Of a stretch of 12,863 nucleotides of DNA, positions 133-11,608 are shown piece after piece; within the stretch, counting starts at the first letter, position 1; every line of letters starts with the position of its first letter. Below the pieces are notes generated by a model, which saw only the letters and a list, made by a program, of their open reading frames with translations, was not told where the DNA came from and ran no database searches. Source of the DNA: Pavlovales sp. CCMP2436 (lineage: Eukaryota; Haptophyta; Pavlovophyceae; Pavlovales); the NCBI GenBank assembly GCA_026770615.1, contig MU631391.1:267771-280633 (forward strand). Reading direction: 5' to 3'. Made by a program: the position numbers and the translations under genes.

Positions 133-362
133 GTTGAACCATGTTGAGCCGCCGATCGCCGATGTTTGTAATACGGTTCTGGCCTTATCCAACAGCAAAA
201 AAAAGGAACGCCGGAGCCTGTAAAATATTTCTGATCGGGATTCAAGCTGGCGTCTGACTGTCCTGGAAGTTGTGCTAGTCTGAGCGTTGCGCCGCCCATT
301 GCCTGCTGCGTGCCGTAGTCGGCTGCGCTGGCTTGGGCGCCACCGCGCGTGCAGATGGATCT
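133..362 (-). repeat. Dispersed repeat family R1, copy 1 (inverted)
   Basis: Positions 222-362, read on the minus strand, match 8371-8510 and 11486-11568 over most of their length. All share GGCACGCAGCAGGCAATG and CAGTCAGACGCCAGCTTGAAT. A second block at 133-152 matches the AGCGGCTCAGCATGGTTC tail of copy 2, so copy 1 carries about 70 extra bases between the two blocks. The minus frame is open throughout (GTQQAM..., QSDASLNP..., AAQHGST) to a TAG near 114. The same frame is open in copy 2, so this may be a repeated piece of a transposon coding sequence; differences between copies are mostly non-synonymous, so selection is not evident. Confidence 0.8.
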
Positions 363-1483: not shown

Positions 1484-1701
1484 CAAGGGTGTAAGGGCTG
1501 GCAACTCACGCTTCCCTTTATTTTAACCGTGTCGCCAAATTTCGAAACGTCCGATCGAAAAGTCCTTATAATTAGAACGACGTTTATTTTAACTGGGTGT
1601 TCAAAGCTTATAATTATAAGGTCTTTTCGATCGGACGTTTCGAAATCTGACGACACGGTTGAAATAAAGGGAAGCGTGAGTTGCCAGCCCTTACACCCTT
1701 G
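1484..1701. mobile_element. 218-bp foldback MITE with 91-bp arms
   Basis: The arms 1484-1574 and 1611-1701 are inverted repeats with only about four mismatches and a 36-nt centre. Both ends begin CAAGGGTGTAAGGGCTGGCA. The flanks GCTCTGT (1477-1483) and GCCCTGT (1702-1708) may be a 7-bp target duplication with one mismatch. It has no coding capacity, so it would be non-autonomous and mobilised in trans. Its superfamily cannot be assigned. The few arm mismatches imply fairly recent origin or repair between arms. Confidence 0.85.
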
Positions 1702-2151: not shown

Positions 2152-2185
2152 AGCCACGCGCCCTGTCCGGCCGGCAAGAGACCCC

Positions 2186-2533
2186 TTGTTGGGAATCGTG
2201 GCAGGGGGGAAGGAGATAACAGACGCCCTCTCAAAAAGGGGCAGGCTCGGCGAGCTGCGCACAGCGCACGTCATTAGAATATTGTTGTATATTACGGTTC
2301 TGGTCACGCAGGTGCTCGCGTCTGTATCCGAGCCGCAGGAACTCGACGACACCGACGCGCGGGATGAAGCGTGCGATGAGGGGGCGGTGGCAGTGGCCAG
2401 CGGGTTGGCGGTGCGCACAGCGGCGGGCGCCACTGGAGCAGACACTGGGAGAGCGGACACTGGGGCGGACACTGGAGATGCCAGCACAGCCGGGGCCACT
2501 ACTGGGGTGGAATCGAGTGACGGGCTCCCGGTG
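2186..2533 (+). CDS. Uncertain acidic coding segment without a Met
   Basis: The frame is open from 2111 to a stop at 2618-2620 but contains no ATG, so it could only be an internal exon or a relic. The peptide has a hydrophobic stretch (VIRILLYITVLVTQVLA), then an acidic region (EPQELDDTDARDEACDEG), then short repeats (TGADTGRADTGADTGD) from GCGGACACTGG repeats at 2440-2475. A consensus donor GTGAGT at 2534-2539 would end the exon at 2533, before the frame reads into a T-rich tract. The opposite strand is also open here, as expected for GC-rich DNA, so strand is uncertain. No family is recognised. From 2621 to 2739 there is AT-rich sequence with a small palindrome (CGAAAAATAAATATTTTTCG, about 2702-2722) and no gene. 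Confidence 0.2.
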
Positions 2534-2739
2534 GTGAGTAGCCAACCTACGAAAACCAATCCCACTTCTCCCGCCTCTGCCCTGGAAGATATTCATTTTT
2601 TGGGGTGTTTTTTTTGGTAAAGCGTTAAAACTATTATCAAAACAAAATGCCACACTTTCATCATCATCAAAATATATTTACTATATACGATGAATGAAAA
2701 GCGAAAAAATAAATATTTTTCGTATAACGTTGAAATGAT

Positions 2740-2765
2740 CAGACATTGCAGTGATCCCTAGATAG
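2740..2765 (+). repeat. Left terminal inverted repeat
   Basis: Matches the reverse complement of 4659-4684 at 25 of 26 positions. A second GTGATCCCTA follows at 2773-2782. Confidence 0.85.
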
Positions 2766-2782
2766 TGAGTAAGTGATCCCTA

Positions 2783-4128
2783 AACCGTAGAGCTCGACCG
2801 AGGCGATCGCGATTTCGTTGTAGCTGTTGACAGCGACGTCCAGCGCGTCGGTGCGCAGCGGCCACGACACGACAATATTGGTCGAGGGTAGGCTGAACTC
2901 GCTGCCGTACAGCGGCGAGCCCGAGCTGATATACGAGTTCGAATCGGAGAATGTGATGCTCTACGAGCCGAGCGCGGCGTCTGTGGCGTATGCAGGTGCG
3001 CCCATGGTGGTGAGGCTCGAGTAGCCATACGCGTCAACGCTGCGAGATCCAAACGCGAAGGAAAAGGCTGACGACGGCAGGGCGGTGGAGAAGCCCTGCA
3101 TCGCGTGGAACGTGAGGCTACTCGCGGTTCTGTCACCGGTCGCGCTGAGGTAGCCAGTGGTCGTCTCGAGCTGCAGCTGGGCGAAGCCCTACGCCGATGG
3201 TTTTGATACCGAATATCTTCGTAGCAGGGCGGCGCTCGTGGTCGAGCCCGTCCGTAGGCCAAAGGCGACCGTTGCGGAGCGGTAGCCCAGGTAGTTGTCA
3301 CCGACCGTGCTCGAATTGCCAGATAGGCGCATCGGTAGTCGAGCGAAGGCCTATCCGTCGCATTGAAGACGATGACGTTGCTGCCCGGGCCTTTGCCCGT
3401 ACGCACGCTGCGGCTCCGCGGCGAGTCGCCGGTGCTAAGCGATAGGTCAACCGTCGCTGCATCAACGGGCACTGTGGTCGAGGTGATCCCGGTGTACATT
3501 CGCACATCGCGATAGGCTGCGCCCGCAGGCCCCGTGAAGTAGAGGTCGTGCTTAGTCGTGAATGCCGAGGTGAGAGAGACAGTTGTGCTGACCAAAACGC
3601 CGTTCATGCAGACTGCTGCGGTCCTAAGCACCGGTTGGAAGAGCGTAAAATGCGTCCAGGCCTTCTGCGGGACGAGCGTCGTCGTCACGCCGCTGTAACC
3701 ATTGACGGCTCCAGTAAAGGTGGCGCTGTTCTGGCAAGAGCAGTACACGTAGCCTGCGGCCGTGACGCCCCATTTCCACCAATACCCCGAATTGTTGGAC
3801 GTCTTGCCGATTGTCAGCAAGCGCACGTCGGCAGTGATCGTTGGAAGGTAGACCCAAAACGAGTACGTCACATTGTGGTGACCGGGCAGTTGTTCGAGAA
3901 AGCAGTCATGACCGGCTGCACGTTGTAGAGCGATGACGTTGCGCTTGTGAGGAGCGCGGCGGCTTTGCCGCCCACGGTCGTGTAGGAGATGCCGTTCAGC
4001 TCGGAAGCGTCGTAGCGACCGGTCGCGTCGGTGCCAAACGCGGTGAGCGCCCATGTCAGCACCACGCTTAAGTCGACGGTGAGCGTGTTGTTCTCAATTG
4101 CGCCGTCGTACTCGCGAATGGGTGATCC
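2783..4128 (-). pseudogene. Broken concanavalin A-like/LamG-domain protein gene
   Basis: The minus strand encodes a Ser/Thr/Gly/Ala-rich, beta-type protein spread over several frames. The first part (4128-3868) reads TDATGRYDASELNGISYTT, resembling the opening strands of LamG domains. After a frame break near 3870-3905 the next part reads YSFWVYLP, SGYWWKWG, WTHFTLF and YRDVRMYTG, the usual LamG order: core strand, aromatic strand, then a DVRIY-like closing strand. Further breaks lie near 3320-3350 and possibly 3185-3230 (or simply a TAG at 3189-3191), and a TAG interrupts at 2961-2963. The C-terminal half (GDNYLGYRS..., SITFSDSNSY, VELYG) is a second beta-rich region, which would suit a secreted adhesin or a fibre-like protein. 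There is no ATG at the 5' end; a TAG inside TAGGGATCAC (4129-4131) closes the frame. Codons strongly favour G/C endings. The domain is recognised with fair confidence; the biological role is not. Confidence 0.65.
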
Positions 4129-4131
4129 CTA

Positions 4132-4600
4132 GGCGGGGCGCCACAAATCTGAGTGAGTGATTCCTGCTCTCACTCAGGAGCCCCTGCGGCCGAGTGATCC
4201 CTGTCAGCCAACGAGAGAGCAGGGATACACCCGCCACATAAGAAATTCTGAAGGATACCTAAAATCTCGCACATGTGGCTGGCGGATCCTTGCTGTCTCA
4301 TTGGTTCTTCGTTCGTCTGTTCATTCGTTCGTTCGTTCGTTCGTTCGTTTTTTTTTTTTTTGCCCGCACCTCTGAAAACTTTGTCTAGCGATAGCGATGC
4401 CGTTGGCTTTCGCTTTCGCGCGGCTTTTGCCGCTGGGCCTTGATCAGTTAATCCAGTCAGGAATTAGTAGTTTTACACAAGTTAATTCTTATTTGTTGTC
4501 GACCAATATGAGAATATTTGACAACTTAATTTATTCATATATTTACCGATTGGCTCTCACTCGGCGGTCGAGTGAGATGAGTTCTAGAGGGCGGAGTCGC
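4132..4600. other. Non-coding right half of the TIR element, with (CGTT)n and T tract
   Basis: I see no gene here. A (CGTT)n run and a T tract occupy about 4310-4361. TCCTGCTCTC (4162-4171) pairs loosely with GAGAGCAGGGA (4213-4223). The 4440-4550 part is AT-rich, unlike the gene next to it, so the element looks like a composite. Confidence 0.6.
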
Positions 4601-4631
4601 CGAATGAGTGATCCCTGGATAGACTTCACTC

Positions 4632-4673
4632 GATAGGGATCACTCACTCGAGTGATCCCTATCTAGGGATCAC
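4632..4673. repeat. Two overlapping palindromes at the element's right end
   Basis: GATAGGGATCACTC at 4632-4645 pairs with GAGTGATCCCTATC across a 4-nt spacer. AGTGATCCCTA (from 4651) pairs with TAGGGATCACT across TC. They share the middle arm, so alternative hairpins or a cruciform are possible. The arms are the element's own GTGATCCCT motif. Confidence 0.8.
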
Positions 4674-4684
4674 TGTAATGTCTG

Positions 4685-5052
4685 GAAATTATTATCAAAG
4701 AAACGGCGTGCAGAGGACGCGCCGCACTCACAGGTATAATATATTGTACATTGGTATCATGTTCGGTGTGATCAAGACCGTTTGGCCCCTACACTCCTGG
4801 CGGGTGCAAGACCGTTCTCGCGCAAACGTGTACACACCCTCCACCTCGGCTCGGTGAGAGTCGAGGCCTTCCCCGCGCCTGCCCGGGCGGTGGAGGACTC
4901 TACACCGGCGGCAAAGCAGTCCCGGCGGCCCCTGCAGTGCGCAAGGGTCACGCTTGGATGCACGCACGCGTGTCAGGGGCTGCGGGGGGTATGGAGCGGG
5001 TTTAGCGCCTTGAGGGCGAGTCCGTATTCATATAGTAACTAACTAACAATAG
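4685..5052. other. Spacer upstream of the PIP-box gene
   Basis: No convincing gene. A plus frame (4782-5042) is open but unrecognised. GGTGTGATCAAGACCGT (4764-4780) recurs as GGTGTGATCCCGACCGT at 6085-6101, on the other side of the PIP-box gene. CTAACTAACAATAG (5039-5052), just before the ATG, looks like a branch point plus an acceptor, though the spacing is very short. Confidence 0.4.
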
Positions 5053-6404: not shown

Positions 6405-6770
6405 TCACGCGTATGGCAGCTCGGACAGAGGCTCCTCGGAAATTTTGCACACTAGCTCGTGACACTTAGTCGCGTGCGCCGTAGAGGCGGTGTAGTCGCA
6501 CCTTAGCGAGTCGCAGGCGAACGGCTTCTCACCAGTGTGCGTGCGCGTGTGCCTCGTGAGGGGACCCGTCCAAGTGGCGCTGTACTCGCAGCCCGGCTCG
6601 CCGCACGGGAAGTGGCGCTCGGGCTCCTCGTCCGGCGAGGCCGAGTCCGAGCCCTTGTCGTTGTCGCGCGCGCCTCCGACCAGCGTGCAGTACTCGGAGA
6701 CGCCGAGCACGTGCACGCACCCCCGGCGAGTGCACGCGTGTGTCCCGCTGCCGCGCGTCCGCTTCGCCAT
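6405..6770 (-). CDS. C2H2 zinc-finger protein, probably truncated
   Basis: A 121-residue protein starts at ATG 6770 and ends at TGA 6405-6407. Finger 1 has Cys56, Cys61, His74 and His78 (C-x4-C-x12-H-x3-H), followed by the classical linker TGEKPF. Finger 2 has Cys86, Cys91, His104 and Cys108, a C2HC variant. The GCEYSATWTGPLTRH core is a common protist finger type. An N-terminal Cys trio (13, 18, 28) and an acidic linker (36-51) precede. Such proteins bind DNA, or sometimes RNA, in the nucleus; two fingers alone usually give weak binding, which fits the view that a longer array was lost. Codons end mainly in G/C. ATATATATAG near 6870-6880 is a possible TATA element about 100 bases upstream. 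Finger identity is firm; whether the short gene is functional is uncertain. Confidence 0.75.
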   Translation of the reverse strand: MAKRTRGSGTHACTRRGCVHVLGVSEYCTLVGGARDNDKGSDSASPDEEPERHFPCGEPGCEYSATWTGPLTRHTRTHTGEKPFACDSLRCDYTASTAHATKCHELVCKISEEPLSELPYA

Positions 6771-7043: not shown

Positions 7044-7775
7044 CTATATAAACGTTAGGTCCCGTTCGCGGTCTCCAGGTAAAAAAACCTGGAACCAGCT
7101 CCCGAGCCCCCGGATACCGTCCTCCCCGCTAAGACTGATCAGGCACACGACGACTATCGATGACACTCGACTTGCGCGCTGATCAAACTCTGCTGCATCT
7201 CGCTCGTCTCGAAATGCGGCTCGCCTGCTCATGCACCGCACCTGCAGCACATAATACATGCAGCCCCCCCCCACCCACACCCTCTCCTTGCTTGTCAGTT
7301 GCTCTACTAAATTTCTCGTGTCGCCTCGAAGAGTGTCATGTTGGCGTCGATGGTGATTACGCATATTTTCCTGCCTTGCCCGCTGCGCGATGCCGTGAGC
7401 ATTTCTCTGGGAGTCTTATTCTGGCGTGTTCTGCCTCCTGTATAGGGGATCGCGGGCAATAAGAAACCTTCGTGTTTAGAAACCGAGCCTTTATTGCATG
7501 GTTTGTATGTAATTTAAGCAAATTTTAAGCATTTTTTGTATCTAATTTGCTAAGAAACTCAGCCTCAGCCTCAAAAAGCGCCATTCTTATTGCCCGCGAT
7601 CCCCTGTAGTGGTTCGGTGTATCCATGTGGTACCGCCGATCCGCGGGTGGTGCGGGATGTATGCGTAATATACGTCGATATTGTCGCCCACTTTGACGGG
7701 TTCTCTGCTTAGTTTCAGCACTGCGATGTCTGTTTCCATGACTGTCGCTATGCTGTGGAGCACGTTGTCTGACAT
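7044..7775 (-). pseudogene. OTU-like protease relic B, interrupted by a MITE
   Basis: The minus-strand peptide begins at 7775 with DNVLHSIATVMETDIAV, then VGDNIDVYYAYIPHHP. It is homologous to relic A (INMFYSIATILRIDIAI; about half of aligned residues identical). The spacing suits the WxxxxxLxxLAxxLxxxIxV core of OTU-like cysteine proteases. A TAG directly upstream falls where relics A and C have Trp, and a (TA)n tract lies beyond it. The frame runs into a MITE (7443-7606); if the MITE and one TA copy are ignored, the same frame stays open for about 40 more codons (IDANMTLFEATREI) to a TAG at 7307-7309. A neighbouring frame then continues as NLVEQLTSKERVW to 7044. The catalytic N-terminal part (GDGNC-type Cys loop) is absent. 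The family is inference; homology to relic A is visible. Confidence 0.45.
7443..7606 (-). mobile_element. MITE family M1, copy 1 (164 bp)
   Basis: The ends are inverted: the minus strand starts CAGGGGATCGCGGGCAATAA and the plus end differs only at the first base (T for C). TA lies directly outside both ends (7441-7442, 7607-7608). TA duplication and CAG termini fit Tc1/mariner-like MITEs. The interior matches copy 2 (10126-10292) in opposite orientation, including GCGCTTTTTGAGGCTGAG and GAGTTTCTTAGCAAATTA. It has no coding capacity. Confidence 0.9.
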
Positions 7776-8370: not shown

Positions 8371-8528
8371 AGATCCATTGGCACGCGCGGTGGCGCCCAT
8401 GCCAGTGCAGCCGACTATGGCACGCAGCAGGCAATGAGCGACGCAGCGCTCAGACCAGCAAAACATTCAGAACAGTCAGACGCCAGCTTGAATCCCTATC
8501 ACAAATATATAGCGGCTCAGCATGGTTC
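8371..8528 (+). repeat. Dispersed repeat R1, copy 2
   Basis: The fullest copy. It begins AGATCCATTGGCACGCGCGG, contains GGCACGCAGCAGGCAATGAG, and ends with ATATATAGCGGCTCAGCATG. One frame is open throughout (ASAADYGTQQAMSDAAL..., DASLNPYHKYIAAQHGS) and matches the open frame of copies 1 and 3. It is nearly identical to copy 3 over their shared 80 bases, so they separated recently. Confidence 0.85.
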
Positions 8529-9360: not shown

Positions 9361-9835
9361 GCGCTCCATTCCGACACGCTTTCCGCCGACGCACTCGGTG
9401 CCGACGCGCTTGCTGCTCACGTGCTTACCGCCGCCACGCTCACCACTGACGCGCTCGCCACCGCTCGCCACTGGGCTACGCGCTCCGCTCGCCACCAGGC
9501 CTCGCGCTCCGCTCGCCGCCGGGCTACGCGCTCCGCTCGCCGCCGGGTTTTGCACTCCGTTCACTGCCGGACATCACGCTCCGCTCGCCACTGAGCTTTG
9601 CCCGCTTGCCGCCGGGCTTCGTACTCCGCTCGTGGCCTACCTCTCGCGCACCGCTCGCCGCTGGGCCTCGCGCTCCGATCGCCGCTAGGCAAAGCGCTGC
9701 GCTCACCGCCGGGCCCCGCGCTACACTCGCCGCCGGCTTCGCGCTCCGCTCACCGCTGGGCTTTGCGCTCAGCTCGCCGCCGGGCTACGCGCTCCGCTCG
9801 CAACCCGGCCTCGCGCTAAGCTCGCCACTCGCCGC
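9361..9835. repeat. 24-bp minisatellite
   Basis: About 19 degenerate units with consensus CGCTCGCCGCCGGGCTACGC plus GCTC. Because 24 is a multiple of three, all frames keep an 8-residue repeat (APLAAGLR on the plus strand, SGARSPAA on the minus). I take the long frames here as products of the array. The units are most regular at 9470-9560 and degrade outward. Confidence 0.9.
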
Positions 9836-10121: not shown

Positions 10122-10125
10122 TCTA

Positions 10126-10292
10126 CAGGGGATCGCGGGCAATAAAAACGGCGCTTTTTGAGGCTGAGACTGAGTTTCTTAGCAAATTACATACAACCAA
10201 TTGTTAAATTTTGGTTAAAATTACTATTGAAGGGCAAAAAAACGAGGCTCAGTTTCTTAACACGACGGTTTCTTATTGCCCGCGATCCCCTG
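10126..10292 (+). mobile_element. MITE family M1, copy 2 (167 bp)
   Basis: Perfect CAGGGGATCGCGGGCAATAA inverted at both ends, with TA directly outside (10124-10125, 10293-10294). It is collinear with the reverse complement of copy 1. Arms hold subterminal similarity (CTGAGTTTCTTA against TCAGTTTCTTAA). No coding capacity. Confidence 0.9.
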
Positions 10293-10418
10293 TATTCTTG
10301 TCTTTTCCTTCAGAATCACGTGTCGGTCTATAGCACCGAAGTTTTTCCCCGTTGAATTCAGCGTCTAGTTGTACCTCCAGAATTTCAAATAAGAAATGAT
10401 TAATACATAATCATTTAA

Positions 10419-11485: not shown

Positions 11486-11568
11486 GGCACGCAGCAGGCA
11501 ATGGGCGACGCAGCGCTCAGACCAGCAAAACATTCAGAGCAGTCAGACGCCAGCTTGAATCCCTATCA
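11486..11568 (+). repeat. Dispersed repeat R1, copy 3
   Basis: Matches 8411-8493 with very few differences, from GGCACGCAGCAGGCAATGGG through CAGACGCCAGCTTGAATCCC. It lacks the first ~40 and last ~35 bases of copy 2. The same frame is open (GTQQAMGDAALRPAKHSEQS) until a TAA just outside. Confidence 0.85.
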
Positions 11569-11608
11569 GTCAATATAAAGTGAATACAGTACATCTTTGC
11601 CCAGTTTA

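What the first reader, a model, noticed from the sequence alone, without database searches (positions are those of the whole stretch)
2740..4684. A LamG/ConA-like gene packaged in a previously unnoticed TIR element
Terminal inverted repeats match at 25 of 26 positions, an 8-bp flanking duplication matches at 7 of 8, and many subterminal GTGATCCCT copies are present, yet the only gene inside is a broken beta-rich LamG-type protein with no transposase. Non-autonomous DNA transposons carrying an adhesin- or fibre-like gene are unusual. It could be gene capture by a hAT-like element, or the remnant of a small mobile virus-like element. Seen: TIRs, duplication, domain motifs. Inference: class and origin.
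Basis: partly seen in the sequence, partly recalled or inferred. Interest (0 to 1): 0.75.

Follow-up and report, generated by a model that had tools for sequence, protein, structure and literature searches.

The report
Small transposon interrupted by LamG-gene fragment
In what is very probably an Arctic haptophyte alga, a small non-autonomous DNA transposon, one of a family scattered through the genome, carries a decayed piece of a LamG (lectin-like) gene; the element is real, but a gene fragment lodged in a miniature transposon is a known kind of event and nothing shows that the two ever moved together.

Summary
In detail: the ends match 25/26, flanks GAAATGAT/GAAATTAT 7/8, and eight GTGATCCCT motifs lie inside, none elsewhere in the window. 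The genome (very probably Pavlovales sp. CCMP2436) has 63 matches to the 20-bp end (up to 3 mismatches), reversed control 0. Of 20 scored end pairs, 7 have an 8-bp duplication at 7/8 or better, against 4 of 380 cross pairs. Many copies are about 0.5 kb: a MITE family. In three cargo-free copies the MITE runs straight through the cargo site, so the LamG piece (2796-4108) is an insertion into a MITE, with no target duplication or inverted ends seen. The composite was found once, and the piece is decayed (frame change, two in-frame stops). Its larger relative (C8, 70%) lies beside ribonucleotide-reductase and weakly exonuclease-like sequence between copia-like frames, so a viral source is possible but unshown. 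No transposase could be linked to these ends; 'hAT-like' rests on duplication length alone. 'Gene inside a TIR element' is partly supported; 'virus-like remnant' is not. New member of a known kind, modest interest.

The parts
2732..2739 (.). left target-site duplication GAAATGAT
   Evidence: 7/8 with 4685-4692
2740..2795 (+). left arm of the MITE, with terminal inverted repeat 2740-2768
   Evidence: TIR 29 nt 93%; matches L009, L010, L013 and others
2796..4108 (-). inserted fragment of a LamG-repeat gene, decayed; in-frame stops at about 3189-3191 and 2961-2963
   Evidence: absent from cargo-free copies L009, L010, L013; only full-length place in the genome search; frames and stops, stop positions read
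3536..3889 (-). LamG/ConA-like domain (PF13385) inside the fragment
   Evidence: 27.5 bits, cut-off 27.6; 29.4 bits
4109..4387 (+). right part of the MITE, first half
   Evidence: 82.5% to L009; alignment with L009 and L013
4388..4507 (+). dispersed ~120-bp repeat nested in the MITE, perhaps part of a longer repeat
   Evidence: copies up to 95% identical on other contigs; three copies read have different downstream flanks, two share a stretch upstream; no such sequence at this place in L009
4508..4684 (+). right end of the MITE with terminal inverted repeat 4656-4684
4685..4692 (.). right target-site duplication GAAATTAT

Best explanation
A copy of a non-autonomous TIR transposon (MITE, commonly about 0.5 kb) with 8-bp target duplications inserted here. 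Such copies are presumably moved in trans by a transposase that recognises CAGACATT...GTGATCCCT ends (inferred; not found). The copy was interrupted in its left part by a 1.31-kb piece from inside a LamG-repeat gene. The join shows no target duplication and no inverted ends, as expected of a DNA fragment joined in at a double-strand break (inferred). A 120-bp dispersed repeat interrupted the right part. The LamG piece is now a pseudogene and probably does nothing. Shown: the family, its duplications, the uninterrupted MITE in three other copies, the decay. Inferred: break repair, and that the insertion came after the last transposition (about 2 to 1 over before).
For: 63 end matches, control 0; 35 variant ends, control 0. 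8-bp duplication at 7/8 or better in 7 of 20 end pairs (5 exact) against 4 of 380 cross pairs; exact pairs at other lengths: one at 4 bp, one at 6 bp, none at 5, 7, 9, 10. L009, L010 and L013 join window 2795 directly to 4106; L009 and L013 read GAGCTC-C-TACT where this copy reads GAGCTC-[cargo]-TACT, and I see no repeated MITE bases at the join. The cargo query finds this place and two partial relatives only. Decay: two aligned frames, two in-frame stops. Other long copies also carry nested inserts; the C87 insert has 173-bp direct repeats 98.8% alike, i.e. looks LTR-like.
Against: No empty-site allele: a 650-base left-flank search found no second full copy of this locus. 13 of the 20 scored pairs match at 6/8 or less, and one more pair that I left out matches 4/8 by eye. 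This element's own duplication is 7/8, not perfect. A single copy cannot time the insertion. One MITE base at the join differs (C in L009 and L013, G or lost here).
Confidence: 0.8

Rival explanations
1. Pack-TYPE-like gene capture: the MITE acquired the LamG piece before its last hop, and the 1.9-kb composite transposed here as a unit.
For: Both ends are present and the flanking duplication is 7/8; the cargo is coding DNA, as in Pack-TYPE elements (PMC8903248: passages, section 9).
Against: One composite found. The cargo splits one MITE cleanly, whereas the model in PMC8903248 (two neighbouring elements mobilised by their outer ends) predicts captured DNA between two elements. No donor matching the whole cargo was found in the genome.
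Confidence: 0.25
2. The cargo comes from a large DNA virus whose DNA entered the alga in pieces; one piece landed in this MITE and another lies on C8 between copia-like frames. It concerns the origin of the cargo and is compatible with the best explanation.
For: Only two relatives were found in the genome, both partial matches. Differences between the cargo and C8 are concentrated at third codon positions (60/249, 49/250, 98/249), so the genes diverged under protein constraint. On C8 the LamG frame lies beside RNR large-subunit sequence (PF02867) and a frame with a weak pol III epsilon match (E 0.005), between an RVT_2-like frame (30.3 bits, cut-off 31.6) and further frames that I read as copia-like. 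The RNR piece is 68% identical to an IMG/VR contig; its human counterpart in the PDB listing is more distant by eye.
Against: No IMG/VR contig was found to encode the LamG relatives; no homologue outside this genome. The nine capsid-like loci are on other contigs. The C8 LamG frame is open for 430 aa and is an annotated protein of the alga, so it may be a host gene. This RNR was the only RNR match in the genome (2 candidates scored), so it could be the host's. The later copia-like frame tested gave no Pfam match.
Confidence: 0.2
3. Remnant of a small mobile virus-like element (Polinton-like) whose ends are these TIRs.
For: The genome holds nine capsid-like (PF04451) loci, 7 over the cut-off.
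Against: The same ends bound ~0.5-kb cargo-free copies with 8-bp duplications; no PF04451 match on C85.
Confidence: 0.03
4. Assembly artefact joining a MITE and a LamG sequence.
For: Draft assembly; the same MITE insertion appears on two contigs, C14 and C36.
Against: Both MITE halves continue each other at the join, which random misjoining would not give.
Confidence: 0.03

Closest known systems
MITEs (miniature inverted-repeat transposable elements)
   Same: short, TIRs, target duplication of constant length, dispersed copies, subterminal repeats
   Different: this copy carries a 1.3-kb gene fragment and a 120-bp repeat; superfamily unassigned
Pack-TYPE elements of plants (PMC8903248: passages and section 9 seen)
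   Same: non-autonomous TIR element holding a piece of a gene
   Different: one composite found, the cargo splits one MITE cleanly, host a haptophyte, no full donor found
hAT elements and MITEs in the haptophyte Tisochrysis lutea (PMC5963040: passages seen)
   Same: haptophyte host; TIR/hAT and MITE both reported there
   Different: 'captur' has 0 occurrences in that main text; ends not compared
LamG/ConA-like (PF13385) proteins
   Same: domain match at the cut-off
   Different: fragment and pseudogene; no homologue outside this genome at the sensitivity used

Membership tests
MITE | terminal inverted repeats | tested here: met
MITE | target duplication of constant length | tested here: met
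   8 bp: 7 of 20 scored pairs at 7/8 or better against 4 of 380 cross pairs
MITE | multiple short copies without a transposase gene | tested here: met
   paired ends 0.49-0.57 kb apart at C80, C381, C403, C14, C416, C276, C85:164k and others; outliers 105 bp (C408), 133 bp (C678) and 620-2,164 bp (C535, C48, C579, C162, C87). Coding content of each copy was not scanned; about 0.5 kb is too short for a transposase (my judgement)
hAT superfamily | 8-bp target duplication | tested here: met
   hAT = 8 nt in a passage of PMC8903248; other superfamilies also make 8 bp (recalled)
hAT superfamily | hAT transposase with the same ends | tested here: inconclusive
   PF05699: 0 matches, control silent. 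PF14291: 8 hits, 0 over the cut-off, all on contigs without a TIR match.
Pack-TYPE element | gene fragment between the TIRs of a non-autonomous element | tested here: met
Pack-TYPE element | the composite has transposed with its cargo | tested here: inconclusive
   one composite copy found, with a 7/8 duplication; neither shows nor excludes a hop with cargo
Polinton-like virus remnant | capsid gene in or beside the element | tested here: not met
   9 PF04451 loci in the genome, none on C85
LamG/ConA-like domain | PF13385 match over the cut-off | tested here: inconclusive
   27.5 against 27.6 bits; 29.4 bits, over it, in the genome search; model mean pLDDT 31, uninformative

The most novel reading that the evidence does not exclude
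A miniature transposon of a haptophyte has taken up a LamG-repeat gene fragment of a large DNA virus that was endogenised in pieces, so that virus-derived coding DNA sits inside an element that a transposase could move: a route by which viral genes could be shuffled by MITEs.
Probability: 0.13. Interest if true: 0.55.

Novelty: new member of a known kind. Interest (0 to 1): 0.3.

Why it matters
It describes a MITE family with 8-bp duplications in what is very probably a Pavlovales alga, with one clean insertion of protein-coding DNA into it. Judging by titles and opening lines of abstracts, none of the papers listed (7, 0, 2, 1, 10 of 19, and 8 papers) is about gene-fragment-bearing MITEs in haptophytes; the texts were not read for this. 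If the LamG and RNR pieces on C8 are viral, it would link endogenous virus DNA with transposons in an alga. As it stands it is an ordinary nested insertion.

Tried and rejected
Virus-like remnant: rejected, because cargo-free copies share the ends and no capsid-like locus lies on this contig.

Cargo as a mobile element in itself: disfavoured; I see no target duplication at its join, the self-comparison shows no repeats in it, and no second full copy was found.

Tandem-fusion capture: disfavoured, because the two MITE halves continue each other without overlap.

Autonomous partner: three longer copies were read (C87 2,164 bp, C579 1,234 bp, C48 1,165 bp). The C87 insert has LTR-like direct repeats; parts of the C48 and C579 inserts match other held loci. 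C162 and three loci with a related end were read; their open frames of 120 aa or more were listed and judged by eye only, not searched against Pfam. PF05699 gave 0, PF18758 4 hits (2 over the cut-off), PF14291 8 (0 over the cut-off); the nearest to a TIR match is the KDZ hit on C168, about 68 kb away (against 12, 34).

Structure: AlphaFold on a 3-row alignment of the LamG slice gave mean pLDDT 31, so no fold search was made. NCBIfam, PHROGs and PDB sequence searches gave nothing convincing. Rfam: 0 matches in the window. Empty site: the 650-base left flank matched in full only here; the other 40 scored matches are a dispersed repeat.

The third reading frame of the cargo is now marked as my reading.

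Full report
Source. The window is G000:C85:267771-280633 of a 119.4-Mb, 703-contig assembly. A protein from contig C8 of that assembly is 100% identical to T492DRAFT_832166 of Pavlovales sp. CCMP2436. The organism is therefore very probably this Arctic haptophyte, although the published assembly is larger (165.4 Mb, 2,243 scaffolds; PMC9756366, passages seen).

Observation. The ends at 2740 and 4684 are inverted repeats (29 nt, 93%; 25 of 26 over the first 26 nt, read), flanked by GAAATGAT and GAAATTAT (7/8). GTGATCCCT occurs 6 + 2 times inside the element and nowhere else in the window.

A transposon family. CAGACATTRCAGTGATCCCT has 63 matches within 3 mismatches, control 0. A variant end has 35, control 0; 6 places are in both lists. 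Many are paired 0.49-0.57 kb apart, e.g. C80 (568 bp) and C381 (539 bp); there are shorter (105, 133 bp) and longer (620-2,164 bp) pairs too. I compared the 8-bp flanks of 20 end pairs: 5 exact (C381, C80, C120, C48, C535), 2 at 7/8 (this element, C39), 13 lower; 4 of 380 mismatched pairings reach 7/8. At other lengths there is one exact pair at 4 bp and one at 6 bp, none at 5, 7, 9 or 10. One further pair (C149) was left out; by eye it matches 4 of 8. The family is a MITE with 8-bp target duplications.

Anatomy of this copy. The cargo-free copy on C86 (L009) matches window 2749-2795, then 4106-4377, then 4505-4692; its outermost left bases are lost. Two interruptions set the window's copy apart. 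One, about 4388-4507, is a dispersed repeat with copies up to 95% identical elsewhere; of three copies read, the downstream flanks differ and two share a stretch upstream, so it may be part of a longer repeat. L013 has other sequence at that place. The other, 2796-4108, is the LamG piece. At its join L009 and L013 read GAGCTC-C-TACT and this copy GAGCTC-[cargo]-TACT. I see no MITE bases repeated there, and the cargo's self-comparison shows no repeats.

The cargo. On the minus strand it encodes a piece of a LamG-repeat protein (PF13385, E 3.9e-6, 27.5 bits, cut-off 27.6). Aligned with the C8 protein it needs two frames and has two in-frame stops; a third frame for its first part is my reading. 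The genome search found two relatives: C8:712455-713212 (70% DNA identity) and C101:8496-8626 (82% over 131 bp). Against C8 the codon positions differ at 60/249, 49/250 and 98/249 sites (24, 20, 39%), so much of the divergence arose in coding genes. No copy of the whole cargo was found elsewhere. IMG/VR gave no relative, and each of two protein searches returned only the query's own record.

The C8 relative. Its LamG frame is open for 430 aa, so it need not be dead. It lies beside ribonucleotide-reductase large-subunit sequence in two frames (PF02867, E 5.6e-46 and 4.3e-45) and a frame with a weak DNA polymerase III epsilon match (E 0.005). An RVT_2-like frame (30.3 bits, cut-off 31.6) lies on one side and frames that I read as copia-like on the other; the one tested gave no Pfam match. 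The RNR piece is 68% identical to an IMG/VR contig that also has a frame I read as dUTPase, but it was also the only RNR match in the genome. Nine capsid-like loci exist in the genome, none on C8 or C85. A viral source is possible, not shown.

Mechanism. A MITE copy inserted, duplicating 8 bp (shown by family behaviour). A LamG-gene fragment was joined into it, most simply at a break (inferred). Because the composite was found once, capture before the last hop cannot be excluded (about one in four). The Pack-TYPE model of neighbouring insertions mobilised together (PMC8903248, section 9) is not what the clean split suggests. The transposase was not identified: PF05699 gave nothing with a silent control; PF18758 gave 4 hits and PF14291 8, none near a listed TIR match (against 12, 34).

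Verdict. New member of a known kind.

Noticed in passing
window 1484-1701: Near-perfect palindrome: 94-nt arms, 95% complementary, 30 nt between; looks like a foldback-type MITE.
   Followed up: no
window 2159-2285: Dispersed repeat beside the element; 40 further scored matches at 78-91% in the genome, a lower bound.
   Followed up: no
window 225-362, 8371-8508, 11486-11569: Dispersed inverted repeat copies, 89% alike.
   Followed up: no
window 7441-7609 and 10123-10294: Two inverted copies of a repeat that itself has 25-nt inverted ends; perhaps another small TIR element.
   Followed up: no
window 6405-6770 (-): Frame with C2H2 zinc-finger matches below the Pfam cut-offs.
   Followed up: partly
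window 9461-9826: 24-bp tandem repeat, 15.4 copies.
   Followed up: no
L028 (C8:708000-717900): RNR large-subunit sequence in two frames, a weakly exonuclease-like frame and a LamG frame, lying between copia-like frames (copia partly my reading): possible endogenous fragment of a large DNA virus.
   Followed up: partly
C169, C28, C377, C536, C176, C103, C84, C131, C147: Nine NCLDV-type capsid (PF04451) loci, 7 over the cut-off, five in open frames of more than 500 aa: possibly endogenous Polinton-like viruses.
   Followed up: no
L061 (C87:59800-63000): A 2,164-bp MITE copy whose insert has 173-bp direct repeats 98.8% alike: perhaps a short LTR-like element nested in the MITE.
   Followed up: partly
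C14:182374 and C36:447357: The same MITE insertion with reverse-complement flanks on two contigs: haplotig or duplication.
   Followed up: no
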